48,745 nucleotides of DNA, taken from assembly GCA_019459525.1 (NCBI GenBank), contig JAIBEY010000019.1, positions 1 to 48,745 of the forward strand. Direction: 5' to 3'. This DNA is from Prolixibacteraceae bacterium (GTDB taxonomy: Bacteria > Bacteroidota > Bacteroidia > Bacteroidales > Prolixibacteraceae). Shown in pieces: positions 34,971 through 48,166 of the stretch. The stretch's first letter is position 1; the number at the start of each line of letters is the position of its first letter. Under the pieces are notes generated by a model. That model worked only from the letters and a program-made list of their open reading frames with translations, was not told the DNA's origin and did not search any database. The position numbers and the translations under genes are program-made.

Positions 34971-35567
34971 CTACCATTGTATTTTTAAGTTTCTTATTTC
35001 GAGATTTCCATTTGAGTATGAGCCTCCACCATCAGCATTTCGAAATCGATATCTGAGAGTCAAAAACTTTAAAATATCGGTGCTTGGCATTATGTTCCTA
35101 AAAATAATATAACTTTTCGTTGGAACACCTGAAGGTACTGTCGCACAAATTCGGTAAGTCGTAGTTTGATTGGCAATTGAAGCTTCTTTAGCGGCAAAGA
35201 AATTTCCAAGTTCGTCAGCAGCTTGTGCATCATCTGTTCTGATACCCATACAAACTTCCTGGTGTGGTAACTTGTGAGAAATCAAAACTTCAACCATAAC
35301 AGTTTGAAGTCCCCTGTCTCCTTTACAGGATAAAAGCTCTACATTAAAATCTTTACTGAAAGATACCAGTTCAAATTCTTTGGGCTGATTAAAAAAATCG
35401 CACATATTAATCTTTTTATTCAGAAAGGCAGTATCCTGCTTCAAACTATTGATAACAGCTTTCAAATTCAGGTTCTCCTTTTTTATAGCATCAATATTTT
35501 GTGCCGTTTGCCCAGCAGTATTAATCGTTATTAAACCAACAAATGCGAGAATTACGAATCTTTTCAT
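34971..35567 (-). CDS. Secreted protein of unknown function
   Basis: A 198-residue exported protein with a signal peptide (about 1-19, ending TAGQ), a short coiled-coil (about 25-50, IDAIKKENLNLKAVINSLK) and a beta-rich domain that includes three cysteines (CDFF, LLSCKGDRG, EVCMGIRT). It is the last gene on the minus-strand island. No family recognised. A hairpin separates it from the RDD gene. Confidence 0.6.
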   Translation of the reverse strand: MKRFVILAFVGLITINTAGQTAQNIDAIKKENLNLKAVINSLKQDTAFLNKKINMCDFFNQPKEFELVSFSKDFNVELLSCKGDRGLQTVMVEVLISHKLPHQEVCMGIRTDDAQAADELGNFFAAKEASIANQTTTYRICATVPSGVPTKSYIIFRNIMPSTDILKFLTLRYRFRNADGGGSYSNGNLEIRNLKIQW

Positions 35568-35595
35568 TTCTAATTAATTTAAAAATTTAACAACA

Positions 35596-35622
35596 CTACT
35601 GTCTCTTTTAACGAGACAGTAG
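35596..35622 (-). terminator. Hairpin between the RDD and secreted-protein genes
   Basis: A 10-bp perfect stem CTACTGTCTC/GAGACAGTAG around a 7-base loop, 24 bp after the RDD gene stop on the minus strand. The tail is T/A-rich. Probably a terminator. Confidence 0.6.
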
Positions 35623-35646
35623 TTAGGTGTACAAATCAAATGCAGA

Positions 35647-36159
35647 TTATACATCATGACTTTCGTTGCTTATTCTAACTACAACGGTATGAGCTATAAA
35701 ATCATGAATAGCACGTCGCTTAGGATTACTCAGCATTGTAACCAATTCGAGCAACAACCAAAGGAACGACCAGGGACTCATAAAATCGTCGTAATTCTTA
35801 GTTATTAACTCTGTATTTTGTAACGAGATAATAAAATAAACCAGTGCTACACAAGTAATCCCAATTCCAACTATATCGCGCATAATAGCCTGCTGAAATG
35901 TCACCGGGCAGGCTTCAGATACATCCACCAGCTTCACTTTCAGAACCATTTTCCCCAACGTTTGGCCATATCTGGTATGCATTATTACCGAATAACCGCA
36001 CGAAAGGATTACACAAAAGATTTGCCACAGGATAAACCCGACTTTGTTTTCCGTTGATAAAAACAGGTGTTTTTCAACGATAACAAAAGGTAAGAAAACC
36101 AGTCCATCAATCATAGCAGCCCAGAATCTGGCGCCACCGGTGGAGTATTTTTGTTCCAT
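35647..36159 (-). CDS. RDD-family membrane protein
   Basis: A 170-residue membrane protein. The RDD signature is seen in GARFWAAMIDGLVFLPFV (Arg and Asp in the first helix) and RYGQTLGKMVLKVKLVD, with about four hydrophobic segments and the conserved NPKRRAIHDFIAHTVVV at the end. RDD proteins are thought to carry or sense ions or small molecules. Its role in the peptide island, if any, is unknown. Confidence 0.88.
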   Translation of the reverse strand: MEQKYSTGGARFWAAMIDGLVFLPFVIVEKHLFLSTENKVGFILWQIFCVILSCGYSVIMHTRYGQTLGKMVLKVKLVDVSEACPVTFQQAIMRDIVGIGITCVALVYFIISLQNTELITKNYDDFMSPWSFLWLLLELVTMLSNPKRRAIHDFIAHTVVVRISNESHDV

Positions 36160-36353
36160 ATGTTATTTTTAATAGTTCATATTTTTTGTATTCGACCTAT
36201 ACACTAATGTGAATATTCTCCTAAGGACGGGAAGGTTATCTTTGTGTTTTAAACTATTTTGGGTTATAAATCCAGAAAAGTAAAGTTAAGAGGTTAAACT
36301 TAAAACCCTTTTCGAGTTTATTGCGGCATGATAATTTACATAGGATAATCTAT

Positions 36354-36614
36354 TTATTTAGTTTCTTCATCCATTGAGAAACTTGCATTATTAAATTCAT
36401 CAATCAGTCCTTTTGCGCGTACAAAATCAGAATCTTTAACCTTAACCTTCACAGGTGCAACTCCGCCAGAGCATATTTGCGATGGTATAATACTCCCCAT
36501 CAGTTCATTTTCAAGAAATGCAAGAGTTCCATTATCTTCAAGGATTTCTTTGATCATTTCAGCTTGCCATAACTCTCCAGCAAATATTTCAACGAATTCA
36601 AGTTTGTTTTCCAT
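36354..36614 (-). CDS. DUF2007-like small cytoplasmic protein
   Basis: An 86-residue protein. The layout (VEIFAGELWQAEMIKEILEDNGTLAFLEN followed by PVKVKVKDSDFVRAKGLIDEF) fits DUF2007, the putative signal-transducing domain common in Bacteroidota. About 125 bp of AT-rich DNA separates it from the CPBP gene. Function unknown. Confidence 0.75.
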   Translation of the reverse strand: MENKLEFVEIFAGELWQAEMIKEILEDNGTLAFLENELMGSIIPSQICSGGVAPVKVKVKDSDFVRAKGLIDEFNNASFSMDEETK

Positions 36615-36739
36615 TGCTTATGTATTTTTATATTAATTATTTAAAGATAATTAATGAATTACATTACTCGAAAGTAAGCAAAAAGGCGGGAAGATTTCTA
36701 TTACTTATAAACAGGAAACGAGGTAATCTTTGTATAACT

Positions 36740-37528
36740 TTAATCGTAACACTGCAAGTATTTCTTTAAGTTTTTTTGTGTTCCGAACAAGTAAAATCCA
36801 CAGAGAATAAAAACAATAGTTGAAATGGAATATATAGTCAATGAGTATTCATTATATATGCTTAGTAATGAAGAATTTAAATTATCGTGATTAAAGATGT
36901 CCGATGCTAAGCCAGAAGCGTTTGCTGTTACGTGTAATAAAATACATAACAAGATACTTTTGGTACGATAAAAGAAGTACCCAAAAACCAAGCCCCAGAA
37001 TAATGCAGGTATTACCTGTATTATTTTTACGTGGATTAGACCAAAAATTAATGCAGATAATATTATAGCTTTTCTACTATTCTTGTAATTATCTAGCATT
37101 CCATTTAAGATTATTCCTCTAAACATAAGCTCTTCAACAATTGGGCCAATAAGAATTGCTCCTAAATAATAAATGAAACCTATATTAATAACAGCTGTGT
37201 GGTTTGGTGAGAAGTAAATAGATAAAAAATTAATTATTGGGGAAATAACCAATTGATAAGAAATTACTGTAAGCAAAATTATTAATAGGTCTCGATTTAC
37301 TGCTATATGGCAACTAAAGGAAAGTGAAAAACCATTTCGTATATTTATTAACAGTGCTAATAAAAAACCAATAACACCAAAAACTGATCCAACCACAATT
37401 TCATATATCTCCTTCGAAGATTCCTTAAGTAGTTGTTCTTTAAAAGAAAACAGTAGAGTTGTAAAGGCTAAACCAATAAATAACAAAAGGATTGATTGGA
37501 TGATATTTGAAGGAAATCTCTTTTTCAT
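36740..37528 (-). CDS. CPBP-family intramembrane metalloprotease (likely peptide immunity or processing)
   Basis: A 262-residue membrane protein with seven or eight hydrophobic helices. The CPBP (Abi) active-site motifs are present: EELMFRG with E132, E133 and R137, then FGLIH with H166, and HVTAN with H199. In bacteria CPBP proteins often lie beside bacteriocin genes and give self-immunity or process peptides. Here the gene is 111 bp downstream of GG peptide 1 on the same strand, separated by a hairpin. The immunity role is inferred from this context. Confidence 0.88.
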   Translation of the reverse strand: MKKRFPSNIIQSILLLFIGLAFTTLLFSFKEQLLKESSKEIYEIVVGSVFGVIGFLLALLINIRNGFSLSFSCHIAVNRDLLIILLTVISYQLVISPIINFLSIYFSPNHTAVINIGFIYYLGAILIGPIVEELMFRGIILNGMLDNYKNSRKAIILSALIFGLIHVKIIQVIPALFWGLVFGYFFYRTKSILLCILLHVTANASGLASDIFNHDNLNSSLLSIYNEYSLTIYSISTIVFILCGFYLFGTQKNLKKYLQCYD

Positions 37529-37598
37529 AAAATCTTTTTTACAATTTTTATCGTCGGATTAACCCAATCATGGCTATTTTCTAGATATATAAAGATAT

Positions 37599-37624
37599 GC
37601 TAGCGCAATTTATACTACGCTAGC
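37599..37624 (-). terminator. Hairpin between GG peptide 1 and the CPBP gene
   Basis: A 7-bp stem GCTAGCG/CGCTAGC with a 12-base loop, 15 bases after the peptide stop on the minus strand. It may end or dampen transcription, so that the peptide is made in excess over CPBP, or protect the mRNA 3' end. Confidence 0.5.
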
Positions 37625-37639
37625 AATAATTTGACAAAA

Positions 37640-37816
37640 CTAGTCCCCAAAGTAATTTCTGATTGCAGCGGCTCCGTTATGAATTAATACTATTCCATTA
37701 CACAAAGCCTCAAAAGCGTAAGATGCTCGATTTTGTGTACCAGACCACTGCGTATCCCAATATGCAACTTTGCCTCCATCAACCCCCATTAACTCATTTT
37801 TTTCTAACTCTTTCAT
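37640..37816 (-). CDS. GG-leader peptide precursor 1 (bacteriocin-like)
   Basis: A 58-residue peptide. Leader MKELEKNELMGVDGG (15 residues) has the double glycine at 14-15, the cut site for C39 peptidases. The 43-residue core starts KVAYWDTQWSG, is rich in Trp, Tyr, Gly and Ala, and has one Cys, with a small hydrophobic run CNGIVLIHNGAAAI. Leader residues Leu4, Leu9 and Met10 match the hydrophobic spacing of such leaders. The leader is almost the same as that of precursor 2, while the cores differ. A conserved block lies just upstream and a CPBP gene downstream. Activity is not known. Confidence 0.75.
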   Translation of the reverse strand: MKELEKNELMGVDGGKVAYWDTQWSGTQNRASYAFEALCNGIVLIHNGAAAIRNYFGD

Positions 37817-37835
37817 TGATGTAAATTTAAAATAA

Positions 37836-37937
37836 TTTTTCCTACTCGTATCTGGCTTTTCGGAACCCGCCTAAGTTTTTGTGCACGAAACTCAGGAGTA
37901 AAAGTAAAGCGGCTCACTCTCAAATTTTGAGAGTGAG
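37836..37937 (-). promoter_or_regulatory. Conserved upstream block of GG peptide 1
   Basis: About 100 bp that recurs upstream of GG peptides 2 and 3. Strictly kept strings include CCTACTCGTATCTGGCTTTTCGGAA, given here on the plus strand and split across 37841-37865, and AAGTTTTTGTGCAC. The block ends in a 12-bp inverted repeat (CTCACTCTCAAA-T-TTTGAGAGTGAG, 37913-37937). Promoter and 5' untranslated leader are the simplest reading. Confidence 0.6.
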
Positions 37938-38034
37938 AAAATTATTTTTGTTAAAATTAACGAAACAGGCCAAATTAGTAAACCCGCCGTTTTCTTTTTG
38001 CAGTTCATTGTACGATAGTTCTTTCCGGAAGAAT
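37920..38034 (-). pseudogene. Remnant of the HTH-GG protein tail
   Basis: The minus strand reads FRKELSYNELQKENGG, then FTNLACFVNFNKNNFLTLKI and a stop. This is nearly the same as the C-terminal 38 residues of the HTH protein at 44352-44687. The HTH part is missing, and there is no start codon in frame before an upstream stop. The copied region runs on into the conserved block. Confidence 0.65.
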
Positions 38035-38044
38035 ACCGCTCCTC

Positions 38045-38140
38045 CAGGTATAATACCTTATTGTTCGGCATGGCTGACTACGGATCTGTGATCCGGATAA
38101 AACTACGCGAACAAAATTTCTACCAGCCATTTTTGCCCGA
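38045..38140. repeat. Dispersed repeat family, copy A
   Basis: Degenerate copy shared with copy B: ATAATACCTTATTGTTC.GC.TGGCTG, then GGATCTGTGA.CCG, then TTTCTACCAGCC.TTTTTGCCCG. In plus-strand frame it reads MADYGSVIRIKLREQNFYQPF. Nature unknown. Confidence 0.6.
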
Positions 38141-38198
38141 GAGAGCACGGAGAGTCAAGGAATTAGAAGTACTGTTTAATTAGGCAGAACCAGTATTT

Positions 38199-38519
38199 TT
38201 ATAGTATGGCAGAAAGTTTTCGAATTTGATTGAAGCGTTCGGTAAGTGTTTTGTCGGCACGTGCTATTTGCATATTGTAACGTGTTTGCATGTTCACCAA
38301 TGTATCTGGATCAACCCCAAGTGCGGCTTCAATGAGTAGTGCAAATTCAGTATTTACGGGGCGTTTGGCGTTCAATATTTCATTTAGCAAGGTGTGGGAT
38401 ACGCCTATTTTTGCAGCAAGTTTGCGCTGTGATATTCCGCGATACTCAATTTCATCTTTAAGTATTTCGCCCGGATGTGTTGGGCGAAGTGGTGTCATTT
38501 TATTTGCAGTAGCATCCAT
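38199..38519 (-). CDS. higA: HigA-type antitoxin (XRE helix-turn-helix)
   Basis: A 106-residue antitoxin. The motif PLRPTHPGEILKDEIEYRGISQRKLAAKIGVSHTLLNEIL is the classic HigA/VapI start followed by the XRE helix-turn-helix. It should bind and block HigB and repress the operon. The frame is open further upstream to 38573, but the ATG at 38519 gives the usual start and a 7-bp gap after higB. It is not clearly tied to the peptide system but may stabilise the island. Confidence 0.92.
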   Translation of the reverse strand: MDATANKMTPLRPTHPGEILKDEIEYRGISQRKLAAKIGVSHTLLNEILNAKRPVNTEFALLIEAALGVDPDTLVNMQTRYNMQIARADKTLTERFNQIRKLSAIL

Positions 38520-38526
38520 AACTATT

Positions 38527-38847
38527 TTATTTATAGTGATTTGATAATTCAATGATATTACAAACGGTAACAATAGTGTCGGTTTCTTTCAAGCTTGTTG
38601 TGATAAACTCCATACGATAATGGTCGTTTACCCGAATAGATGAAATGCCTTTTTTGTTTCCTTTCAATACCTCATAATTCAATGAATTGAATTTGTAAAG
38701 GGCTTCCAGGTTAGGGGCGCCAACCAGCATGTCAACACAACGAACGTATTTTGAAACAACCTGAGGCTGGAAACGATGTTTCTTATCAGTTGCCTTTTCT
38801 GTTTCGTACAATTCCCGCAGATACTCTTTTCCGAATGTGACAATCAT
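38527..38847 (-). CDS. higB: HigB-type toxin (RelE superfamily)
   Basis: A 106-residue toxin of the RelE/HigB mRNA-cleaving class. Motifs include RFQPQVVSKYVRCVDML, LNYEVLKGNKKGISSIRVNDHYRMEF (the SIRVN-xYR core) and the C-terminal ELSNHYK. The toxin gene lies before the antitoxin gene, as is typical of hig loci. The ATG at 38847 matches the family start; the longer frame to 38871 is less likely. Confidence 0.92.
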   Translation of the reverse strand: MIVTFGKEYLRELYETEKATDKKHRFQPQVVSKYVRCVDMLVGAPNLEALYKFNSLNYEVLKGNKKGISSIRVNDHYRMEFITTSLKETDTIVTVCNIIELSNHYK

Positions 38848-38961
38848 TGTTCGTTCGATTATTCGGTGCAAATATAAGGCAATTTTTCAAGTGTTCACAA
38901 ATAAGTGAACTTTTACATGTCTTGTTGAAGTTACGCTATAAATCCAGAAGCCCCAGCTATT

Positions 38962-39200
38962 CCGGATATAATGCCTTATTGTTCTGCGTGGCTGGTGTTA
39001 ATTTGTAATCGACACCTCTTGATCGCGGATCTGTGAGCCGTATTTACCTAAACGAAGAGTATTTCTACCAGCCCTTTTTTGCCCGGATAATGGCGTGCCA
39101 AAACGGTAAAGCACTCAACGTTGTTTAGCTGGATTGAAAATCCGGAACCTAAAAAATCTAGCTCCTGCAAACCTTGGGATATATCCGCAGAGCAGGGATT
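38962..39200. repeat. Dispersed repeat family, copy B, in a 377-bp gap
   Basis: The gap 38872-39248 holds the hig promoter side and this repeat. It shares its left part with copy A and its right part (CCGTATTTACCTAAACGAA, TTTCTACCAGCCC, GGATAATGGCG, then the CCGGATT-like hairpin and CTCCTGCAAACCTTGG) with copies C and D. The plus strand reads SRIYLNEEYFYQPFFARIMA but soon stops. Confidence 0.7.
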
Positions 39201-39248
39201 GTTGAGTTTTTTGGTTCAATTAATGGCTGAAAATTATAAACAGTTATA

Positions 39249-40514
39249 CTATTTATTATAAAAAAGTGGCCTTTTAATTAAATGGTAAAGGCGAGTAGAA
39301 TTGTTTAACGTGAGATTTAAAGAGTTCCCACTATGCATTTCGGATTGAATTATCGAGTATAATCTACACTTTTCGTATCTTTCTTTAAGTTTTTCAATGT
39401 CTATATCATTAACTGATTTAATCTCGTCTCCTAAATTAATGCCTTCAATTTGGGCACTTGATTTATCCCAAACATAATTTATGAGTACCATATTTGAATC
39501 AGATATTTCAAAATTGAATCCAAAGGATTGAATACTTTGAAATGAAGGTACGAGAGGATTTCGTAGGATATAAAAGCGTTTTTTGCGAAAATCAAGTGTT
39601 AAGTTTAAGTAATCGAGAAGGCCTAGACCAATCGATGATTCTTTATCAACAAAAGCAATGGGATTTGTAATAGTATCTTTCCCTATTATAAATAAATCGC
39701 TTTTACATAGTTGGTTATGAATAGAATCATTGATATGACTAAAAATCAGTTTCACAGATTTGCCTTTTCCCTCAAGTATTTGAGATTTTCGTAAATAAGG
39801 CAGCATTGTTTGGTTGATAGCGATAGCGGCATCATCTCCCAGATCAATTAATGTTGTAAAACGTGGACGGCTGAATGTGGAGTACAAATACGGGTAAGAA
39901 TTACCTAATCCTTGCATAATTAACTTCCCTCCAAGATTGCCAATATTATCCAAAGATTCAACTCTATTGGAAATAATAACACTATCTTTAGAGATTTGCC
40001 AAATGCATTTATTCATTAAATTGTTCCCAATTATCCCATCAATATTACACAGATTATCGATTCCAAATTCATAATCATTGATACTTGCAAAAGCAATGTT
40101 GATAAACTTAACCCCATTTAATGAAACATTCAGCATTCTGTACTCAGCATTTCTCCTCGTAATTCCATCTGAAAGACTGTCTTTAGCATAAACTTTAAGA
40201 CCCAATTCATTAACAATGGATGCTGAAATAATGCTTGGCGAGCCTGAATCGAGAATAAACCTATATCGTTTTTGAGATCCTTCGATTTCAACATTTTCGA
40301 TTAAATATTTCTTTTTTTCAATTACAGAACTTAGTTGCGTTTTAAACTCTTTGTTAGCAATATATCCCTTTTTTAGTAACTTATGCACTGTTTGCCCGGA
40401 GAGAGTAATAGAATGCAATAAAATAAAGAATAAAAACAGAAACCCAATATTTCTACTTGCCGCAAAAGTATATTTACACTCTCCAAACTTGAGTCTTATC
40501 TTTGATTTGAACAT
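39249..40514 (-). CDS. Secreted retropepsin-like aspartic protease with PDZ domain
   Basis: A 421-residue exported protein. A signal segment (about 22-41, ending LSGQ) is followed by two aspartyl protease halves: ILDSGSP with the catalytic D89, and TLIDLGDDAA with D224 (a DLG variant of DTG). A PDZ-like domain lies at about 335-410 (AQIEGINLGDEIKSVNDIDIEKL). It belongs to the PF13650-type group in Bacteroidota. It lies downstream of a broken GG peptide gene in the same direction, which suggests it was the partner gene of that module. Substrate unknown. Confidence 0.85.
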   Translation of the reverse strand: MFKSKIRLKFGECKYTFAASRNIGFLFLFFILLHSITLSGQTVHKLLKKGYIANKEFKTQLSSVIEKKKYLIENVEIEGSQKRYRFILDSGSPSIISASIVNELGLKVYAKDSLSDGITRRNAEYRMLNVSLNGVKFINIAFASINDYEFGIDNLCNIDGIIGNNLMNKCIWQISKDSVIISNRVESLDNIGNLGGKLIMQGLGNSYPYLYSTFSRPRFTTLIDLGDDAAIAINQTMLPYLRKSQILEGKGKSVKLIFSHINDSIHNQLCKSDLFIIGKDTITNPIAFVDKESSIGLGLLDYLNLTLDFRKKRFYILRNPLVPSFQSIQSFGFNFEISDSNMVLINYVWDKSSAQIEGINLGDEIKSVNDIDIEKLKERYEKCRLYSIIQSEMHSGNSLNLTLNNSTRLYHLIKRPLFYNK

Positions 40515-40694
40515 TATTTAAATAGTTAGTTATTAATAAAATTATTCGCAGGTATGATTTGACGATTTAATCCTTGCTACAAATAGTCTCACCAAAGATT
40601 ATTAAGCATCATTGATGAGACCTGTAGATGCCTGTGAATCAGTTTTTTAGACTTCAAAAAAAGATTTCACTGCCAAAATTGAAAAAAATTGTTG

Positions 40695-40838
40695 TTATGC
40701 CCATCTGGATTTACATTTAACTTCGCCATTGTTTCTTACAACAACTTTAAGATCCCAGGTTCCGTCGCCGTCAATGTCCAATCTATTTTTTAACGAAATA
40801 CCGCCAACAATTTTCTTTAATGTTTGCTCCGTATTTAC
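40695..40838 (-). pseudogene. Start-less GG peptide frame (precursor 4 remnant)
   Basis: An open minus-strand frame of 47 codons bounded by an upstream TAG at 40839-40841. It reads VNTEQTLKKIVGG and then a core starting ISLKNRLDIDGDGTWDLK and ending CKSRWA. The leader's LKKIVGG pattern fits C39 cleavage. No ATG, GTG or TTG precedes the GG, because the 5' part has been replaced by repeat copy C. Probably a decayed precursor, unless an unusual start is used. Confidence 0.6.
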
Positions 40839-40977
40839 CTAAACGAAAAGTATTTCTACCAGCCCTTTTTTGCCCGGATAATGGCGGGCCAAAACGGCAA
40901 AGCACTCAAGGTTATTTGGCCGGATTGCAAATCTAACTCCTGCAAACCTTGGTATATATCCGCAGGAGCGGGGATTC
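40786..40977. repeat. Dispersed repeat family, copy C
   Basis: Shares its first 55 bp with copy D, over the LKKIVGGISLKN codons on the minus strand, and the rest with copies B and D. The plus strand is open: IYLNEKYFYQPFFARIMAGQ and on to a stop at 40996. The gap 40515-40993 holds only this repeat and the precursor 4 remnant. Confidence 0.7.
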
Positions 40978-40993
40978 CAAGGAGCGAGGGAAG

Positions 40994-41401
40994 TTAATCA
41001 ATCCTTGTAGCTTCCACATAATCGATAGAATTTTTATCAAATTTTTCTGGCCGTTCTCCGCAAGAATTTGGGTTAATCTGTAATTGAATCGTATTATCAT
41101 TGATTAATTGAATGATACCACGAACTGTAACATTAGAATAGTCAGATATAATATCTATCTTATATGGTTTTCTTTTCCCCGTAATCTTGTAAGTAAGCTT
41201 CGTTTTTTTTAGCAGCTTATCACTAGATTCAACAGATTTATAGGTTTGACTATCAATGGATATACGATATTCAGAATTTGAATCAAATTCTATAATTACT
41301 TCCTTTTTTGCTTGATTTTGGTATGTCCATTTGCCAATAAAGTTTTGACCAATACTGGAAAGAATTAGAAAATTAAATACGATTGTAATTATTGTTCTCA
41401 T
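40994..41401 (-). CDS. Small secreted lipocalin-like protein
   Basis: A 135-residue exported protein; signal peptide about 1-18 (ILSSIGQ). The mature start NFIGKWTYQNQ recalls the GxW motif of lipocalin-like proteins, followed by alternating strands (EVIIEFDSNSEYRISID, LTYKITGKRK). Two-thirds are beta-prone. It lies downstream of GG peptide 2 on the same strand, after a hairpin and a gap with a decayed frame. It may be a partner or immunity protein, but this is a guess from position. Confidence 0.6.
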   Translation of the reverse strand: MRTIITIVFNFLILSSIGQNFIGKWTYQNQAKKEVIIEFDSNSEYRISIDSQTYKSVESSDKLLKKTKLTYKITGKRKPYKIDIISDYSNVTVRGIIQLINDNTIQLQINPNSCGERPEKFDKNSIDYVEATRID

Positions 41402-41709
41402 GAGTATTTTTTTGATTTTAATTTGTCACACGGAATTCGTTTGATTCGCCAACTATCAAATAATCATTTCGATTGGTCTCATCTTTGTCGAGATGCTCAT
41501 CGTATTCGTATAAAATATTTTTGCCATGTTAAGATTAAGAACGTACTCATTGAGTGGCAGTATGCCAGCTAGTATAAGGTTTGTGTGAGCTTTCACTCTC
41601 ATGGTGGGTTCCATATAATAGTAAATGTTATGAATCTATAAATAAATACGGAAGATAATCCGTATTTATTTTTAAATGAATAGCTATGGATATTGTTTGG
41701 GGAAGGATT
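41402..41709. other. 308-bp gap downstream of GG peptide 2
   Basis: Holds a strong hairpin at 41641-41670 and, on the minus strand, a short frame reading ILYEYDEHLDKDETNRNDYL and ending FRVTN near 41420. That frame has no start codon after an upstream TAA and may be a gene remnant. Nothing else is recognised. Confidence 0.4.
41641..41670 (-). terminator. Hairpin downstream of GG peptide 2
   Basis: A perfect 12-bp stem AATAAATACGGA/TCCGTATTTATT with a 6-base loop, 39 bases after the peptide stop on the minus strand. Probably a terminator or mRNA end stabiliser. Confidence 0.6.
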
Positions 41710-41874
41710 CTACCAATAATCGAAAACAATCTGGCCAAGAATATTAGATAATTCGCCTGTTTCATAATTCAAGAAAAAGATTTCCTTACAACCACAATTG
41801 CCATCTAAGCCAATCAATTTTTGAGTAAATCCGCCATCAACCCCCATTACCTCATTTTTTTCTAACTCTTTCAT
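41710..41874 (-). CDS. GG-leader peptide precursor 2 (bacteriocin-like)
   Basis: A 54-residue peptide. The leader MKELEKNEVMGVDGG differs from that of precursor 1 in one residue. The 39-residue core starts FTQKLIGLDGNCGCK, with a CGC pair that could form a disulfide or be modified, and ends IVFDYW. Core and leader evolve separately: leaders are almost the same, cores are unrelated. The conserved upstream block is present. A C39 exporter is encoded 3 kb away on the same strand. Activity unknown. Confidence 0.75.
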   Translation of the reverse strand: MKELEKNEVMGVDGGFTQKLIGLDGNCGCKEIFFLNYETGELSNILGQIVFDYW

Positions 41875-41878
41875 AGTC

Positions 41879-42046
41879 TTAAAGTATTAAAATTTCTCCT
41901 ACTCGTATCTGGCTTTTCGGAATCCGCCCAAGTTTTTGTGCACTAAACTCAGGAGTAAAGTTCGGTTCACTCTCATAAAAAAGTAGTGAAGCATTTTTTA
42001 ACGAAATACCACCAACAATTTTCTTTAATGTTTGCTCCGTATTTAC
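41879..42046 (-). pseudogene. Chimeric start-less GG peptide frame
   Basis: A 55-codon minus-strand frame: VNTEQTLKKIVGGISLKN as in the precursor 4 remnant, which then runs (ASLLFYESEPNFTPEF) straight into the conserved upstream block of peptide 2. It looks like a deletion join between an old precursor gene and the next module. No start codon after the TAG at 42047-42049. Confidence 0.6.
41892..41973 (-). promoter_or_regulatory. Conserved upstream block of GG peptide 2
   Basis: About 80 bp nearly the same as the blocks before peptides 1 and 3 (CTCGTATCTGGCTTTTCGGA, AAGTTTTTGTGCAC and AAACTCAGGAGTAAA on the plus strand). Here the terminal inverted repeat is broken after CACTCTC. Confidence 0.6.
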
Positions 42047-42154: not shown

Positions 42155-42312
42155 GTGGTGATTTTAAGTCAGCACTGGCGACTGCAAAATTTTTGTGTAT
42201 CCGGAGGATCAGGAGAAGTTTGACAAACTTCCAGGAAGTTAAGGAATGTTCGCCTCAAGCGAGTTACAAGGAGCGAAGATGTAAAATGCCTAGAATTTCA
42301 TTTCCAAGCCGA

Positions 42313-42783: not shown

Positions 42784-42821
42784 AGTTTTATTATTTAAGG
42801 TTTGGTCGCACTTAATAACGT

Positions 42822-44009
42822 TCATTTCAGCAGTTCTATAACTTTTTTTTCTTCCGAGGTTAATTGTATTGCATTTTGCCTTTCCCAAAATGCTGACTGA
42901 TAATTATTTCCTAGAGGGTATAATGATTTTTTTGTGTAATTGCTTTTGAATGGATGAGCATCAGGTGATTCATTAACAAACTTGTTAACCAATAAATCAC
43001 TTGAAAAACCAAACGTTACATTTAGCTTTTTATTGTTCCACATCCTAATCTCGGCACGTTTACTAATGTACCAGGGTTGATAGATACCATTATTTACGAG
43101 GAACAGGGCAAAAATCTCCTGTTGGAGAAGTTGTGCCTTTAAAACAATCATATTGGTTATCTTTGGCGTTTTTGAATCATTTTGTTCTAAGCTATATGAA
43201 CATGACAAGATATATTTACTTTGTTCGTCAATAATAATTTTACCCTGAAGAAGAAGTTCTTTAATATTTTCTTTTGGTGTAAAAGTAATTTGCACCTGAC
43301 CTTTTATGTTTTTCTCAGCTTTAGAGCCAACATGGAATTCATACTTATCAGCGTTCTCGATAATTTTACTAATCGCATTTAAAAAGAATGGACTAATCAT
43401 CTTTTCTATGTCTAGAGGAGAATTTAAATTCCAATCGATCTCCTTGTCGGCTTCAGTATTTAATTCATTTGCCCGCGATTGTTTAACAAAAACTTTTGTT
43501 TTAGGATCTACTGCTTCTCCTGATAAATCATAATCTATAAGTCCATCAGAGAACTTGGTATATTTGTTGTTTTCCTTCACAAATTCGCGATAATATGTTT
43601 CTAATCGAAAAGGTAATTTAAGATTGGCTTTAGATATAGATAGAGCTTCTTTCAGTTGATCTAAAGCACTATTACCATGAATAGTTACTTCATCTATTGT
43701 AAATGTTTTGGGGGTAAGTTTAATAGTTTTATGCTCCTTTAACTCTGAAATAATTATAGTTTTCGGCTCATAAGCTATATGACGAATAAGGATAGAATCG
43801 CAGAGGGTAAAGTTTCCCAAAAGAATAAAATATCCTTCACTATTTGTAATTGTATTGGTGTTTTTGCCCTTAATCATGATCTGGGTGTAAGCCAAGGAAT
43901 CTCTATCATTTTCGGAAACTACGATTCCCTCGACACTTGCCAACTGAGCAAAAGTAATGTTGATAGATAGAGAAAAAAGAATTGTAAAGAAAAAGCAATA
44001 ATTCTTCAT
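42822..44009 (-). CDS. Exported protein with carboxypeptidase-regulatory-like domain
   Basis: A 395-residue exported protein; signal peptide about 1-21 (NITFAQ). The N-terminal domain (about 22-105, ASVEGIVVSENDRDSLAYTQIMIKG and TNSEGYFIL) is the CarboxypepD_reg-like beta-sandwich common in Bacteroidota surface proteins. The rest resembles DUF5686-like exported proteins (LETYYREFVKENNKYTKFSDGLIDY). The ATG at 44009 is chosen. It is the first gene downstream of GG peptide 3, 81 bp away across a hairpin, so it may be its partner. Confidence 0.75.
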   Translation of the reverse strand: MKNYCFFFTILFSLSINITFAQLASVEGIVVSENDRDSLAYTQIMIKGKNTNTITNSEGYFILLGNFTLCDSILIRHIAYEPKTIIISELKEHKTIKLTPKTFTIDEVTIHGNSALDQLKEALSISKANLKLPFRLETYYREFVKENNKYTKFSDGLIDYDLSGEAVDPKTKVFVKQSRANELNTEADKEIDWNLNSPLDIEKMISPFFLNAISKIIENADKYEFHVGSKAEKNIKGQVQITFTPKENIKELLLQGKIIIDEQSKYILSCSYSLEQNDSKTPKITNMIVLKAQLLQQEIFALFLVNNGIYQPWYISKRAEIRMWNNKKLNVTFGFSSDLLVNKFVNESPDAHPFKSNYTKKSLYPLGNNYQSAFWERQNAIQLTSEEKKVIELLK

Positions 44010-44052
44010 CGCATAAAATTTAATGATTAAATGCCTACTATTTAAATTAAGA

Positions 44053-44079
44053 TAATGGGTTGAAGGTATCAACCCATTA
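44053..44079 (-). terminator. Hairpin downstream of GG peptide 3
   Basis: A perfect 11-bp stem TAATGGGTTGA/TCAACCCATTA with a 5-base loop, 11 bases after the peptide stop on the minus strand. Confidence 0.55.
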
Positions 44080-44090
44080 TTAGAGAACCC

Positions 44091-44249
44091 TTAAATATCA
44101 AATGTCATATCTCCTCCCGAGAAGATAAATCCGATGGCAAGACTTGCGGCAAAACCAAGTAATGCCTGCCACCATTTCATACCACCCTGTACTTCTTTGA
44201 GTTCTTCACAAGAAAGTTCCTTAAATCCTTTAGTTTCTAAATTATTCAT
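44091..44249 (-). CDS. GG-leader peptide precursor 3 (class II bacteriocin-like)
   Basis: A 52-residue peptide with a textbook leader: ELSCEELKEVQGG, GG at 22-23, with the LSxEEL motif of C39-processed leaders. The 29-residue core starts MKWWQALLGFAASLAIGF and ends GGDMTFDI. It is very hydrophobic and could form one membrane helix, like pore-forming class II bacteriocins. The leader is unlike that of precursors 1 and 2. It lies just after the HTH-GG gene and the conserved block and 2.8 kb from the exporter end. Confidence 0.82.
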   Translation of the reverse strand: MNNLETKGFKELSCEELKEVQGGMKWWQALLGFAASLAIGFIFSGGDMTFDI

Positions 44250-44261
44250 TGCTGTAAATTT

Positions 44262-44367
44262 AAATAATTTTTCCTACTCGTATCTGGCTTTTCGGAACCC
44301 GTCCAAGTTTTTGTGCACCAAACTCAGGGGTAAAAGTAAAGCGGCTCACTCTCAAATTTTGAGAGTG
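44262..44367 (-). promoter_or_regulatory. Conserved upstream block of GG peptide 3
   Basis: About 105 bp closely matching the block at 37836-37937, including the 10-bp inverted repeat CACTCTCAAA-T-TTTGAGAGTG at 44347-44367, which spans the stop codon of the HTH gene. It may be an operator for that regulator, a terminator, or a leader RNA structure. Confidence 0.6.
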
Positions 44368-44687
44368 ATAAAATTATTTTCATTAAAATTTACCAAACAG
44401 GCTAAATTATAAAAACCGCCGTTTACTTTTTGCAGTTCGTTGTACGATAGTTCTTTGCGGAAGAACCCACACATAAAATTAACTTCGTCGGAATATACAT
44501 AGCTTTGGTAGCGTATGCTGAACTCAACCGGGGCATCCATTCCTTTAATGGTTTCAATCAGTCGGTAAAGCGATGCCTCCGAAATGTCAAGCCGTTGGGC
44601 AAATTTCTTTGGTGTTCCGGTCGATTTAAGGCGAATCAGTTGGTCGATCCGCTCAATTAACTCGATTTGCTGAAGTAGTTTGTTCAT
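44352..44687 (-). CDS. Small helix-turn-helix protein with a GG-leader-like C-terminus
   Basis: A 111-residue protein. Residues about 5-50 form a helix-turn-helix (IDQLIRLKSTGTPKKFAQRL, ISEASLYRLIETIK), like small HTH proteins of Bacteroidota. The segment VEFSIRYQSYVYSDEVNFMCGFF follows. The tail from residue 79 (ELSYNELQKVNGG, GG at 90-91) looks like a double-glycine leader followed by a 20-residue core starting FYNLACLVNFN. It may be a regulator that senses or binds the C39 system, or a precursor fused to an HTH by recombination. It lies between the exporter genes and peptide 3. Confidence 0.7.
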   Translation of the reverse strand: MNKLLQQIELIERIDQLIRLKSTGTPKKFAQRLDISEASLYRLIETIKGMDAPVEFSIRYQSYVYSDEVNFMCGFFRKELSYNELQKVNGGFYNLACLVNFNENNFITLKI

Positions 44688-44736
44688 AACTGTTATGATA
44701 TTAGACTTTAGACAATAGATATTAGACTTTTTTATT

Positions 44737-44762
44737 CCTGACAGGTTTTAAAACCTGTCAGG
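44737..44762. repeat. 26-bp perfect palindrome between exporter and HTH genes
   Basis: CCTGACAGGTTTT is followed by its exact reverse complement AAAACCTGTCAGG. Strings of this type are scattered between genes in many Bacteroidota, so it is probably a small mobile or structural repeat. It may also end transcription of the exporter gene. Confidence 0.75.
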
Positions 44763-44770
44763 TCTGAATT

Positions 44771-44798
44771 CCCCTCCCTCGGAGTTGGCTAGGGGAGG
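44771..44798 (-). terminator. GC-rich inverted repeat over the exporter stop codon
   Basis: CCCCTCC and GGGGAGG flank a 14-base loop; the exporter stop (44789-44791) lies between the arms. With the next palindrome it could form a terminator. Confidence 0.4.
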
Positions 44799-46942
44799 CT
44801 TCTTTGCCGCTGCCACATCTGGTAATAGTAGCCTTGCTGCGCATACAGTTCAGTATGGTTGCCTTGTTCGGTAATCCGACCTTCGCGGAGTACCACAATC
44901 TCATGGGCATCGACTACTGTACTGAGGCGGTGGGCAATCAGAACAACAGTTTTGACTTCAGCGACCAGTTGGCGGATGGTTTGTTGTACCACTTGTTCCG
45001 ATTCGGAGTCGAGGTTCGAGGTTGCTTCGTCCATCACCAAAATCTCGGGTTGGCGGTACAAAGCACGGGCAATAGCCAGGCGTTGACGTTGCCCGCCCGA
45101 GAGTGTGGCTCCATGCTCACCTATGTATGTGGCCAGCCCGTTGGGCATTTTATCGATAAAGCTGAGCATATCCAGTTGCCGGCAAATTTTCAGCAGGCGT
45201 TCCATATCGGGGGCGAATTCGCCTACTGCAATATTTTCTATCACGCTTCCGGCAAACAATTCGAGGTTTTGGGGCACAATGCCCACCACTTGCCGCAAGC
45301 TTTCGGCGCTGGCATAACGTATGTTAATCTCGCCAATGGTAATTTGTCCCTTATTTACGGGGTACAGCCGTTGCAACAAGGCGGCTATGGTGGTTTTGCC
45401 CGAACCGCTCTCGCCAATAATGGCAGTGAGTTTGCCTTGTTTCAGTTCGAGGTTGAAATTTTCGAACACATCAACCCGTGTACCGTAGCTAAACGAAACT
45501 TCGTTGAATACAATGTTCCCGAGTAATTGGGGTGTAAGTTCAACGGTTTGCTCAGGTTCGTCGTCGCGTTCCAGGTCCATGATTTCGAACAGGCGGTCGG
45601 CAGCAATGCGCGCGTTCTGCCAGGTTTTGTTCATTCCGATCAGCGAACTTACCGGTCCGGTGAAATAACCGATAAGGGCATAAAACGACATCAGCTCGCC
45701 CGGAGTAATGGTATGGTCGATCACGAGCAAACTACCACTCCAGAGTAAAACGATGGTAAACAGGCGGGTAACCAGTTGTGAAGCATTACCGGTATAAATC
45801 CCGTTCAGCCCCGACTGGTAAATGTTGTCGAGCAGTCGCATAAACCGGGTTTCGGTTTTCAGGTTATTAAACTCTTCAAGGTTCAATTGCTTGATGGCCT
45901 TGGCTGCGTTAACCGACTCAACCAGTTGTGTTTCCAACTCGGCAGCGTTTTCCATGATTTTGCGTTCCCGTTTTTTGTTGAGTTGGTTGGTAACCCAATA
46001 AAGCAAGGCATATAGTGGGATTACAATCGTCATGATCAGCGCCAGCTTCATGCTGTAAATAAACATCAGTACAAAAGAGAACATGAGAATGAACAGGTTG
46101 ACCAGGATGTTGATCATGGTATCGTTGATGAATGCCCGGATTTTTACTGCATCGTTGATGCGCGAGATGATTTCGCCGGTACGCATGGTATCGAAAAACC
46201 GCTGGGGCAACTTCAGCAGGTGTTTGTAGTAACCCAAAATCAGGCGGGCATCGATCAACTGTCCGGTTCGCAGCACGAATACCGATTGCAGCGAGCCAAT
46301 CACGATTTGCACCAACAGAATAACCACCATGCCCACGCTGAGTAAGTTGAGCAGGTTTTTGTTCCCGTCGGGCAATACAAAATCGGTTATTTTCTGGATA
46401 TAGATTGACGTTGACAAGCCCAGCACGGTGTAAACAATTGCCCCGATTAATGCCTGAACCAGTATTTTTCGGTGTGGGTAAAGCAGATAACGGAAGCGCG
46501 CCAGTACCGGCACTTTCTCGTCGCGGGCAATAAACCCCTGATCGGGCGACAGCAGGATGAGTACGCCAGTCCATTCTTCAGCAAATTCGGCGTGGGTTTT
46601 CCGGTGGATTTGACCATCGCCGGGATCCATAATTTCCACGTAATTTTTTGTGAATTTATATACCACTACATAGTGTTGCAATACTTTTTTTACTACCACA
46701 TGGGCAATGGCGGGTAATGGAACTTCGTTCATCGCGTCAAGTTCGCCTTTCACCCCTTTGGCTGAAAAGCCTAATTTTTCGGCTGCCTTGATGAGTCCCC
46801 AGGCATTGGTTCCCTTTTTATCTGTTCCGGCCCACTGGCGGATGCGCGCGATGGGGATTTTCAGGTTGTAATGTGCCGAAATCGAAGCCAGGCAAGCCGC
46901 ACCGCAATCGGTAATGTCATGTTGTTTTATTTTTATGCTCAT
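44789..46942 (-). CDS. C39-peptidase ABC exporter (bacteriocin maturation and export)
   Basis: A 717-residue transporter that cuts GG leaders and exports the core. The C39 peptidase is at 1-135: QHDITDCGAACLAS with the catalytic C13, H90 in LQHYVVVYK and D106 in MDPGDG. A six-helix membrane domain follows (about 155-440). The ATPase has Walker A GESGSGKT (510-517), signature LSGGQ (614-618), Walker B ILVMDEATSNLD with D638, and the switch His in IAHRLS. All key residues are present. GC is higher than in the peptide genes. The HlyD-type gene lies 75 bp upstream, so both form one export machine. Confidence 0.95.
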   Translation of the reverse strand: MSIKIKQHDITDCGAACLASISAHYNLKIPIARIRQWAGTDKKGTNAWGLIKAAEKLGFSAKGVKGELDAMNEVPLPAIAHVVVKKVLQHYVVVYKFTKNYVEIMDPGDGQIHRKTHAEFAEEWTGVLILLSPDQGFIARDEKVPVLARFRYLLYPHRKILVQALIGAIVYTVLGLSTSIYIQKITDFVLPDGNKNLLNLLSVGMVVILLVQIVIGSLQSVFVLRTGQLIDARLILGYYKHLLKLPQRFFDTMRTGEIISRINDAVKIRAFINDTMINILVNLFILMFSFVLMFIYSMKLALIMTIVIPLYALLYWVTNQLNKKRERKIMENAAELETQLVESVNAAKAIKQLNLEEFNNLKTETRFMRLLDNIYQSGLNGIYTGNASQLVTRLFTIVLLWSGSLLVIDHTITPGELMSFYALIGYFTGPVSSLIGMNKTWQNARIAADRLFEIMDLERDDEPEQTVELTPQLLGNIVFNEVSFSYGTRVDVFENFNLELKQGKLTAIIGESGSGKTTIAALLQRLYPVNKGQITIGEINIRYASAESLRQVVGIVPQNLELFAGSVIENIAVGEFAPDMERLLKICRQLDMLSFIDKMPNGLATYIGEHGATLSGGQRQRLAIARALYRQPEILVMDEATSNLDSESEQVVQQTIRQLVAEVKTVVLIAHRLSTVVDAHEIVVLREGRITEQGNHTELYAQQGYYYQMWQRQRSLP

Positions 46943-47017
46943 GATTTTAGTTACTATTTGATTATTTACTATTTACAATTTTGAGCCGCGAACATTAAAT
47001 GGTAAATCGTCAATGTT

Positions 47018-48166
47018 TTAATGGTCAATAAGTTTAGGGTTTAGCCAGTCATCGGCTTTGTCGAATAGCAATTCATATAAGCTCCGGCGGTTTATTAAGA
47101 AACGTGAGGTAAGAGTCAGTCCATTTTTCAGTTTTCCTTGATAACCTGATTTTAGAGAAAGACAATCCTGATTAAGTTTGCATTTCACCTTAAAATAAAC
47201 CGATTCCTTTTCCTGATAGGGTTGATTGGAAATATCAATAATTTCGCCGGTAGCCAGTCCCCATTGGTTGTAGTTGTAGGCATCAACCTGAAATGTTACA
47301 GATTTGCCCTTTTGTAGATATCCAATATCGTTTGGGCTGACGTAACATTCAACAATCAGGCTATCGGACGGAGTTATGGCTGCAATGGTTTGGTTTAGAA
47401 AAATGAAGCTACCAGTTTGTACTCCGGTAAAATTCGAAATATAGCCATTGGCTGGGGCAATCACCACGTAAAAACGTTCTTCAAATCGAAGTTGATCACG
47501 GTTATCGGTAAGCGATTGTAGTTCTGACTTGTATTGAAACAGTTGCTGGTGCCAGCTTGCCTTTTTCTGGCTGGTATAAAAATCACGTTCCTTAATCAAT
47601 TGATTCAATTCCAACTCTTTCTTCTCAAACTCGGCAGCCGCAATGACTTCTTTTTCGAACAACGACTTGGTCCGCTGAAAATCCTTACTGGCGGTTTCAA
47701 GACGCATCTGGTATTCTCTTAATTTCTGATTGTATTCAGCAGAACTGCTTTCCAACAATTCGCTCTGAACACGAGTACTCTTACCGTTCACCAAATTTTC
47801 AAGATCACGTATATAGCCTGAATACAATTCTATTCTATCATCGAACATCCGCAGTTGGTCATCAATTTTTTCCGGGGCGAGCCAAATTAAGGTATCGCCA
47901 ATCGTAACCTTCATGTTTTCGCGGATGCATATTTTTTGTACTTGCCCTGTAACTGGAGCCTGAATACTGGTTGGCTCCGTTTGTGAACGGATAATTCCGC
48001 GGGATTGTGCAGTTACATCAACTTTTAAAATGGGAAGAGCAACTAGTGTAGCAGTTATGACTCCGATAAGAACAAGGTAAACTGCGATTGAATGCCTTGA
48101 AAACCGTGCATAATGGCTCTCAAGCGAGAACATGATAATTTCCTTTGGGAAAATGGTCTGTTTCAT
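47018..48166 (-). CDS. HlyD-family membrane-fusion protein of the peptide exporter
   Basis: A 382-residue adaptor with one membrane helix (about 28-48, AVYLVLIGVITATLVALPI). A biotinyl-lipoyl-like half-motif follows (SIQAPVTGQVQKICIRENMKV), then a long coiled coil (about 105-215), the second half (VIAPANGYISNFTGVQTGSFI) and a C-terminal beta domain. It spans the periplasm and links the C39 ABC exporter to an outer-membrane channel, which is not in the window. The ATG at 48166 is used; another at 48133 (MFSLESHY) is equally possible. Confidence 0.92.
   Translation of the reverse strand: MKQTIFPKEIIMFSLESHYARFSRHSIAVYLVLIGVITATLVALPILKVDVTAQSRGIIRSQTEPTSIQAPVTGQVQKICIRENMKVTIGDTLIWLAPEKIDDQLRMFDDRIELYSGYIRDLENLVNGKSTRVQSELLESSSAEYNQKLREYQMRLETASKDFQRTKSLFEKEVIAAAEFEKKELELNQLIKERDFYTSQKKASWHQQLFQYKSELQSLTDNRDQLRFEERFYVVIAPANGYISNFTGVQTGSFIFLNQTIAAITPSDSLIVECYVSPNDIGYLQKGKSVTFQVDAYNYNQWGLATGEIIDISNQPYQEKESVYFKVKCKLNQDCLSLKSGYQGKLKNGLTLTSRFLINRRSLYELLFDKADDWLNPKLIDH

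What the first reader, a model, noticed from the sequence alone, without database searches (positions are those of the whole stretch)
34971..48166. Modular GG-peptide (bacteriocin-like) island with at least three precursors and different partner genes
On one strand lie an HlyD adaptor, a complete C39 ABC exporter, an HTH-GG protein, and three intact precursor genes of 52-58 residues with double-glycine leaders, missed by a 60-residue cut-off. Each precursor is built the same way: conserved upstream block, peptide, hairpin, then one partner gene (peptide 1 with CPBP protease; peptide 2 with lipocalin-like protein; peptide 3 with carboxypeptidase-regulatory-like protein). A fourth, broken peptide precedes an aspartic protease. 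The family facts on C39, HlyD and CPBP are established; the idea of a module with swappable core and partner is inference.
Basis: partly seen in the sequence, partly recalled or inferred. Interest (0 to 1): 0.9.

Follow-up and report, generated by a model that had tools for sequence, protein, structure and literature searches.

The report
Modular exported-peptide island with tailed regulator
A bacterium of the Bacteroidota carries a set of small, probably secreted, bacteriocin-like peptide genes built from interchangeable blocks, together with a DNA-binding regulator that carries the same kind of export signal as the peptides, which suggests a way to tie gene control to peptide export.

Summary
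The island has an HlyD adaptor, a complete C39 exporter, an HTH-GG protein and three strict GG precursors, the only three in 48.7 kb (0 of 200 shuffles of the island reach three). Peptides 1 and 2 share 42 of 45 leader bases, while their cores are no more alike than shuffled sequence and their partners are unrelated: cores and partners were swapped at the GG. Each peptide-partner gap has a strong hairpin. Corrections: the upstream block contains a sub-threshold match to Rfam DUF805b RNA; the 'broken fourth peptide' is an HTH-GG tail remnant fused to a headless core (D-x-D-x-D-G-x-W-D); 'lipocalin-like' has no significant support. Three cassette types recur elsewhere (CPBP, CARB, aspartic protease with an intact D-x-D-x-D-G-x-W-D peptide). 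The surprise is HTH-GG: directly downstream of 33 of 40 independently found C39 exporters in the family, GG invariant in 30 of 30 aligned proteins, low-confidence tail, and an inverted repeat at its own 3' end; in the window that 21-base repeat occurs nowhere else in 5.5 Mb except before peptide 1. Most likely a multi-cassette class II bacteriocin-like locus with an export-coupled regulator. Activity, cleavage and DNA binding are untested.

The parts
47018..48166 (-). HlyD-type periplasmic adaptor
   Evidence: HlyD_3 48.2 bits, HlyD_D23 40.6 bits, both above cut-off
44789..46942 (-). C39 peptidase-containing ABC exporter, complete
   Evidence: Peptidase_C39, ABC_membrane, ABC_tran; TIGR01193 above cut-off
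44352..44687 (-). HTH-GG regulator: winged HTH (residues ~1-70), double-glycine leader motif ELSYNELQKVNGG (GG = residues 90-91), 20-residue tail
   Evidence: TIGR01847 bacteriocin_sig 16.6 bits vs cut-off 15.7 at residues 78-91; GG invariant in 30 of 30; AF2 HTH pLDDT ~90, residues 89-111 below 50
44347..44367 (.). operator-like 21-bp palindrome overlapping the 3' end of HTH-GG, upstream of peptide 3
   Evidence: only two sites with <=3 mismatches in 5.54 Mb, reversed-pattern control 0
44271..44305 (-). DUF805b-like element before peptide 3 (stem partly broken)
   Evidence: RF02914 20.9 bits, gathering 35.6
44091..44249 (-). precursor peptide 3, 52 aa, leader ...LSCEELKEVQGG
   Evidence: TIGR01847 15.8 bits vs cut-off 15.7, TIGR03949 20.7 vs 21.5
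44052..44080 (-). hairpin between peptide 3 and partner
   Evidence: z -3.81
42822..44009 (-). partner 3 (CARB): protein with CarbopepD_reg_2 domain, start chosen by eye
   Evidence: 45% relative directly after a related GG peptide in G130:C294
42313..42783 (-). second gene of the peptide-3 cassette (P191), ATG start chosen by eye
   Evidence: 43% over 121 aa relative follows CARB in G130:C294
42028..42154 (-). boundary repeat D2, copy before peptide-2 cassette
41966..42037 (-). remnant of an HTH-GG tail (EQTLKKIVGGISLKNASLLFYESE) with inverted-repeat-like end
   Evidence: resembles tails of L061/L052 HTH-GG
41896..41930 (-). DUF805b-like element before peptide 2
   Evidence: RF02914 30.7 bits, E 1.1e-5 in 6.8 kb, gathering 35.6
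41710..41874 (-). precursor peptide 2, 54 aa, leader MKELEKNEVMGVDGG
41640..41671 (-). hairpin between peptide 2 and partner
   Evidence: z -5.46
40994..41401 (-). partner 2 (LIPO in my scripts): small protein, fold not established
   Evidence: only one other relative in 140 family genomes, in the C39 island of G002, there without a recognised GG peptide next to it
40820..40965 (-). boundary repeat D2, copy before peptide-4 remnant
40695..40838 (-). peptide-4 remnant: HTH-GG tail fragment fused to core RLDIDGDGTWDLKVVVRNNGEVKCKSRWA; no start codon
39249..40514 (-). partner 4: Asp_protease_2 + PDZ protein
   Evidence: PDZ below cut-off; relatives after intact D-x-D-x-D-G-x-W-D peptides
39029..39190 (-). 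repeat D2, copy after the aspartic protease
38084..38139 (-). repeat D2, partial copy before peptide-1 cassette
37923..38036 (-). remnant of HTH-GG residues 74-111
   Evidence: 84% identity match
37915..37935 (.). second copy of the 21-bp palindrome, upstream of peptide 1
37839..37873 (-). DUF805b-like element before peptide 1
   Evidence: RF02914 33.2 bits, E 1.5e-6 in 6.8 kb, gathering 35.6
37640..37816 (-). precursor peptide 1, 58 aa, leader MKELEKNELMGVDGG
37598..37625 (-). hairpin between peptide 1 and partner
   Evidence: z -2.69
36740..37528 (-). partner 1: CPBP/Rce1-like membrane protein, probable immunity protein
   Evidence: PF02517 79.5 bits vs 22.4; same family after GG peptides in other loci
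36354..36614 (-). 86-aa ORF that follows CPBP
   Evidence: 62% relative in the same place in G016:C176

Best explanation
The island is a multi-cassette class II (double-glycine) bacteriocin-like locus of a Prolixibacteraceae bacterium (family inferred from named same-genus kin). One HlyD-C39 exporter is expected to cut after GG and export several unrelated core peptides. Each cassette is: operator/promoter region, DUF805b-like element, leader, core, hairpin, then a cognate partner that most likely protects the producer (CPBP for peptide 1) or handles the peptide in the envelope (CARB, small protein, aspartic protease). New cassettes arose by duplication of the leader end and replacement of core plus partner at the GG or just before the start codon. 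The regulator HTH-GG most likely binds the inverted repeat at its own 3' end, which is also the upstream region of the first peptide, and its C39-type leader most likely docks the exporter, so that export or cutting feeds back on expression. Shown by sequence: gene content, leaders, swap points, recurrence, HTH-GG/C39 linkage, GG conservation, the palindrome. Inferred: cleavage, secretion, killing, immunity, DNA binding, feedback.
For: Three strict precursors, 0 of 200 shuffles; C39 above TIGR01193 cut-off, peptide 3 and HTH-GG just above the cut-off of the short signal model TIGR01847; leader 42/45 bases identical in peptides 1 and 2 while cores align at 74/146 (0.51; shuffled cores 0.50 mean, 0.56 maximum); upstream 120 nt of peptides 1 and 3, 114/121; no hit between the four partners better than E 2.3 (all). 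CPBP partners recur: of ten partner proteins scanned (ten of 26 listed), six hit Rce1-like, five above cut-off. A 45% CARB relative stands directly after a GG peptide. Aspartic protease relatives at three loci follow intact D-x-D-x-D-G-x-W-D GG peptides. HTH-GG directly downstream (<=250 nt) of 33 of 40 C39 exporters, five more within 6 kb; GG invariant 30 of 30 aligned; HTH-GG leader pN/pS 0.26 with pS 0.73 as in the HTH part, five sequences; palindrome only at the two upstream blocks in 5.54 Mb; inverted repeats after the HTH-GG glycine codons stronger than in a coding control of the same genes, Wilcoxon p 3.8e-5, 17 of 61 loci at p<=0.05.
Against: No expression, cleavage or activity data. 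No precursor-family model is reached (best 20.7 vs 21.5, TIGR03949, peptide 3), and peptides 1 and 2 reach no model at all. The window cassettes carry one peptide each, whereas many relatives carry two. The 20 distant CARB relatives (24-28%) show no GG peptide by my pattern within about 1.5 kb, so the family is not dedicated to peptides; the G074 tandem aspartic proteases have none, nor was one seen for the more distant ones. The only relative of the small partner protein, in G002, lies about 2.6 kb beyond the nearest recognised GG peptide. HTH-GG is missing at 9 of 34 named C39 loci. 44 of 61 loci show no significant inverted repeat.
Confidence: 0.65

Rival explanations
1. The peptides are secreted signals (pheromones) or envelope factors rather than toxins, and the partners are receptors or processing proteins.
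For: Partners of peptides 2-4 are not typical immunity proteins; the D-x-D-x-D-G-x-W-D core is well conserved between the window remnant and G130:C241 (WDLK.VVRNNG.VK.K.RW), unlike what one expects of fast-evolving toxins.
Against: CPBP partners recur next to GG peptides, and CAAX proteases are counted as immunity genes in pneumococcal blp (PMC4860687, passages); no two-component receptor among the ten island proteins scanned.
Confidence: 0.25
2. The GG in the HTH protein is a relic: the HTH gene was fused by chance to a precursor leader and the tail only carries the operator of the next gene.
For: The tail codes over the inverted repeat and has reduced synonymous change (pS 0.49 vs 0.73); an HTH-tail/core fusion is seen in the window (peptide-4 remnant). 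Four to six named relatives do not have GG.
Against: GG is invariant in 30 of 30 aligned proteins of the family although synonymous sites are far diverged, and is present at 19 of the 25 named loci that have the gene, in flavobacterial, cytophagal and other relatives.
Confidence: 0.2
3. The island is a decaying relic with a few surviving frames.
For: Peptide-4 remnant without start codon, HTH-GG tail remnants, third DUF805b copy with a broken stem.
Against: Exporter, adaptor, HTH-GG, three precursors and the partner genes are open frames; a second locus (C39 85% identical, HTH-GG, two GG peptides) is present in the same genome.
Confidence: 0.08

Closest known systems
Pneumococcal blp bacteriocin locus (class IIb, double-glycine; PMC4860687, passages seen)
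   Same: One dedicated exporter, several GG peptides, CAAX-protease (CPBP) genes counted as immunity genes, recombination of peptide groups, short transposase-derived repeats proposed as recombination points.
   Different: Here no histidine kinase/response regulator was found among the ten island proteins scanned; a HTH protein with its own GG leader instead; DUF805b-like 5' elements; non-CPBP partners; Gram-negative adaptor HlyD.
Bacteroidetocins (PMC6671954, passages seen)
   Same: Bacteroidota, GG leader, ABC exporter with double-glycine peptidase domain, small ORFs often not annotated.
   Different: Bacteroidetocin regions carry a TM protein and mostly a thiol oxidoreductase, peptides have at least two cysteines, and no immunity protein was found; here HlyD, HTH-GG, CPBP, several cassettes; only peptide 2 has two cysteines.
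RiPP clusters with PCAT exporters in Bacteroidales (PMC10352776, passages seen)
   Same: GG precursors with C39 exporters; one cluster with an HTH gene.
   Different: No modifying enzyme among the ten island proteins scanned.
DUF805b RNA, RF02914
   Same: CCGAAAA-CC...GAGUAGG element about 20 nt before the start codon.
   Different: Window copies score below the gathering cut-off; elsewhere the family mostly precedes other genes.

Membership tests
Class II double-glycine bacteriocin locus | short precursor with canonical GG leader | tested here: met
   three ORFs, 0 of 200 shuffles; TIGR01847 signal model just passed by peptide 3 only (15.8 vs 15.7)
Class II double-glycine bacteriocin locus | dedicated C39 exporter in the same locus | tested here: met
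   TIGR01193 549 vs 523.85
Class II double-glycine bacteriocin locus | cognate immunity gene next to the peptide | tested here: inconclusive
   CPBP for peptide 1; function of the other partners unknown
Class II double-glycine bacteriocin locus | match to a curated precursor-family model | tested here: not met
   best 20.7 bits vs cut-off 21.5, TIGR03949, peptide 3
Class II double-glycine bacteriocin locus | antibacterial activity | not testable with these tools
   needs peptides and strains
Class IIb two-peptide bacteriocin | two adjacent GG peptides in one unit | tested here: not met
   single peptides in the window; pairs in the second own locus and in a number of relatives
Class IIb two-peptide bacteriocin | GxxxG motifs in both cores | not tested
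   -
Bacteroidetocin | thiol oxidoreductase gene (present in most described regions) | tested here: not met
   no such domain among ten island proteins
Bacteroidetocin | at least two cysteines in the peptide | tested here: not met
   read from sequence: cores of peptides 1, 2, 3 have 1, 2, 0; met by peptide 2 alone
blp-type locus | two-component quorum-sensing regulator | tested here: not met
   no histidine kinase or response regulator domain among ten island proteins
RiPP cluster | modifying enzyme | tested here: not met
   none among ten island proteins
CPBP/Rce1-like | Pfam PF02517 above cut-off | tested here: met
   79.5 vs 22.4
DUF805b RNA RF02914 | score above gathering threshold | tested here: not met
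   33.2, 30.7, 20.9 vs 35.6; the second own locus reaches 42.5
HTH_11-type regulator | Pfam HTH_11 above cut-off | tested here: not met
   18.8 vs 25; AF2 model has a winged-helix layout but no PDB match at E<=0.001

The most novel reading that the evidence does not exclude
HTH-GG is an export-coupled transcription factor: a repressor or activator that carries a C39 leader at its C-terminus, is docked or cut by the peptide exporter, and so reports export capacity to the peptide promoters through an operator written into its own 3' coding end; the released tail may itself be a signal peptide. The same kind of leader also serves D-x-D-x-D-G-x-W-D peptides paired with an aspartic protease, a peptide-protease pair that I could match to no known family here.
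Probability: 0.35. Interest if true: 0.85.

Novelty: new variant of a known kind. Interest (0 to 1): 0.66.

Why it matters
Small peptide genes of this kind are easily missed in annotation (for bacteroidetocins 45.7% of regions lacked an annotated peptide gene; PMC6671954, passage). This island gives a search rule (C39 exporter, HTH-GG, short GG ORFs): the exporter was found 40 times in 39 of 140 family genomes, and HTH-GG relatives by profile in 29 of 395 genomes across the phylum (the profile scores mainly the HTH part). If HTH-GG is processed by the exporter, it would be a direct physical link between export and transcription, testable with one purified protease domain and one gel shift. It also attaches some members of a little-studied Rfam RNA family to a defined kind of gene.

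Tried and rejected
(1) 'DUF805b RNA is specific for GG peptides': rejected. Of 92 DUF805b hits that lay in fetched regions (not all hits), 21 are followed directly by a clear GG precursor by my reading of the listing, three more possibly; the rest precede other genes or nothing clear. The script's own tally of 46 used a loose pattern and overcounts. (2) TAnnTTTG promoter upstream of DUF805b: 8 of 91 against 5.7 expected from shuffles (maximum 13), not supported. (3) The region before peptides 1 and 3 as a stable RNA fold: z -0.35 and 0.75, not supported. (4) D2 as a transposase fragment: its six-frame reading and neighbours show nothing that says so; one further copy in 140 family genomes (G008), beside a gene whose start reads like a CPBP protein and a LacI-type gene (labels by eye); origin unknown. 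(5) CARB structure: AF2 mean pLDDT 37.6 on a three-row alignment, discarded. (6) CARB and aspartic protease as dedicated partners: only the closer relatives sit beside GG peptides. (7) PDB by sequence for HTH-GG, CARB and the small protein: nothing. (8) Plasmid collection with one D-x-D-x-D-G-x-W-D peptide: no match. (9) Literature: searches (open-access library, listings only, plus passages); nothing listed describes HTH regulators with a C39 leader or this island. The paper in which I recall the DUF805 motifs were described could not be opened.

Full report
What is there. On the minus strand of 35-48 kb lie, in order of transcription, HlyD (47018-48166), a complete C39 exporter (44789-46942), HTH-GG (44352-44687), peptide 3 (44091-44249) with CARB and P191, peptide 2 (41710-41874) with a small protein, a peptide-4 remnant with an aspartic protease, a HigB-like/HTH pair, and peptide 1 (37640-37816) with CPBP and an 86-aa ORF. 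The three precursors are the only strict GG-leader ORFs in 48.7 kb; 0 of 200 dinucleotide shuffles of the island reach three. The left 34 kb carry a TraG P-loop protein, TraM, a TraG/TraD-type coupling protein and a topoisomerase, so the island sits beside conjugation genes on a contig that is as long as the window.

How the cassettes are built. The 120 nt before peptides 1 and 3 agree in 114 of 121 aligned positions, those before peptides 1 and 2 in 95 of 126. Peptides 1 and 2 share 42 of 45 leader bases, but their cores align at 74 of 146 (0.51), the level of shuffled cores (0.50 mean, 0.56 maximum), and the best hit between any two of the four partners has E 2.3. Peptide 3 has a different leader behind nearly the same upstream region. 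The exchange points are therefore the GG codons and the neighbourhood of the start codon. A hairpin of 12-13 pairs lies between each peptide and its partner (z -2.69, -5.46, -3.81). A repeat, D2, occurs four times in the own genome of 5.54 Mb, all in this island; three copies stand within about 50 nt upstream of HTH-GG tail remnants. One further copy was found in 140 family genomes. Its origin is unknown.

The upstream block. It contains three things. First, a 21-bp palindrome, CACTCTCAAAaTTTGAGAGTG, before peptides 3 and 1 and nowhere else in the genome with up to three mismatches. Second, GTGCACAAAAACT, seen in relatives too. Third, an element that matches Rfam DUF805b at 33.2, 30.7 and 20.9 bits, below the gathering score of 35.6, with one or two mismatched pairs in the four-pair stem; the second own locus reaches 42.5 bits. 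Of 70 strict GG precursors in the loci held, 22 have a DUF805b-like sequence just upstream, in 12 genomes of 5 genera; in the loci that had not been chosen by DUF805b it is 13 of 50. DUF805b is not specific for peptides, and the window copies do not fold better than shuffles.

The fourth peptide. The frame 40695-40838 reads VNTEQTLKKIVGG-ISLKNRLDIDGDGTWDLKVVVRNNGEVKCKSRWA and has no start codon. Its first part resembles the tail of HTH-GG proteins of the L061/L052 kind (TEQTAKKVIGGFSLNNASLLFYES), and the same remnant, joined to D2 at the same base, stands before peptide 2. It is thus a regulator-tail remnant run into the core of a lost precursor. The core is real: intact GG peptides with D-x-D-x-D-G-x-W-D stand directly before relatives of the aspartic protease in G130:C241 (42%), G114 (34%) and G130:C177 (28%). 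At G130:C241 no HTH-GG was found in the 14 kb fetched. Two tandem relatives in G074 have no such peptide, and none was seen by pattern beside the six more distant relatives.

Recurrence of other cassettes. Peptide 1, CPBP and the 86-aa ORF recur together in G016 (50%, 41%, 62%), where the peptide's ATG is out of frame in that assembly. Peptide 3 kin, CARB (45%) and P191 (43%) recur in G130:C294. The small protein has one other relative in 140 genomes, in the C39 island of G002, about 2.6 kb beyond the nearest recognised GG peptide, so its pairing with a peptide is not confirmed elsewhere. Of ten partner proteins from other loci (ten of 26 listed), six hit Rce1-like/CPBP (five above cut-off), one aspartic protease, one CarbopepD_reg_2, two nothing. 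In a number of relatives two GG peptides follow HTH-GG before a small membrane protein, and the second own locus (C39 85% identical) has 46- and 53-aa peptides in tandem. CAAX proteases are counted as immunity genes in pneumococcal blp (PMC4860687, passages).

HTH-GG. Searched separately, C39 exporters of this kind (E<=1e-180) number 40 in 39 of 140 family genomes, and HTH-GG relatives occur in 57 of 140 at E<=0.01, short HTH proteins without the tail included. By coordinates HTH-GG lies within 250 nt downstream of 33 of the 40, and within 6 kb of five more (one downstream, four upstream); the remaining two had none on their contig. In 30 aligned proteins, chosen from 44 ORFs, GG is invariant; of the 44, 37 match the leader pattern. 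Across the phylum 29 of 395 genomes have a profile match. Among 34 named C39 loci 25 have an HTH-GG-type ORF: 19 with GG plus a tail, three with AG, three with neither by pattern (one of these, L206, reads AG by eye); nine loci have none, five of them shorter than 8 kb. Five close relatives give pN/pS 0.18 for the HTH, 0.26 for the leader and 0.35 for the tail, with pS 0.74, 0.73 and 0.49: the leader is kept as protein, while the tail also looks constrained as DNA. That fits the palindrome, which overlaps the last codons. After the GG codons, 17 of 61 non-redundant loci have an inverted repeat at p<=0.05 (three expected), and scores exceed those of a coding control (p 3.8e-5); 44 do not reach that level. 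AlphaFold2 gives a winged-helix layout at pLDDT ~90 and low confidence from about residue 71 on, with one short helix at 82-86; Foldseek's best matches, NiaR, CggR and BirA among them, have E 0.01 or worse.

Mechanism. Cutting by C39 at GG and export with HlyD follow from the families. Immunity by CPBP is a known role of that family and fits its place. Regulation by HTH-GG at its own 3' end, and docking of its leader on the exporter, are inference. The simplest version: free exporter takes up or cuts HTH-GG, precursor-loaded exporter does not, so that promoter activity follows export capacity. Nothing here excludes the opposite sign, or a released tail that acts as signal.

Against what is known. 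It works like a multi-cassette class II locus such as blp, but no two-component system was found, the precursors reach no curated precursor-family model, and it lacks features of bacteroidetocin regions. I file it as a new variant of a known kind. The literature searches named in Tried and rejected listed nothing on HTH proteins with a C39 leader; they cover open-access papers only.

Noticed in passing
window 1-34103: Conjugation genes (TraG P-loop, TraM, TraG/TraD-type coupling protein, topoisomerase, N6-methylase/helicase) fill the left two thirds of the contig; the island may be cargo of a conjugative element.
   Followed up: partly
window 38199-38871 (-): HigB-like toxin and HTH_3 antitoxin-like pair inside the island between the aspartic protease and peptide 1.
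   Followed up: partly
G114:C1:2501000-2542900 (L071, L138): A relative with four strict GG cassettes with DUF805b in one locus, and a near-identical peptide pair repeated about 21 kb away.
   Followed up: no
L127, L128, L133, L135, L141, L162-L164: DUF805b RNAs also stand about 20 nt before genes for 87-89 aa, probably secreted proteins of one look (MKKLKSIFLPAVVVLLGVGAA...).
   Followed up: no
L078, L087, L288: Short HTH proteins of the same family without the GG tail, with no C39 exporter of this kind found beside L078 and L087.
   Followed up: partly
L252 (G008:C16): The only D2 copy outside the own genome in 140 family genomes lies between a CPBP-like and a LacI-type gene (labels by eye).
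   Followed up: partly
window 34971-36159 (-): An RDD membrane protein and a 198-aa protein at the end of the island, not tied to any cassette here.
   Followed up: no
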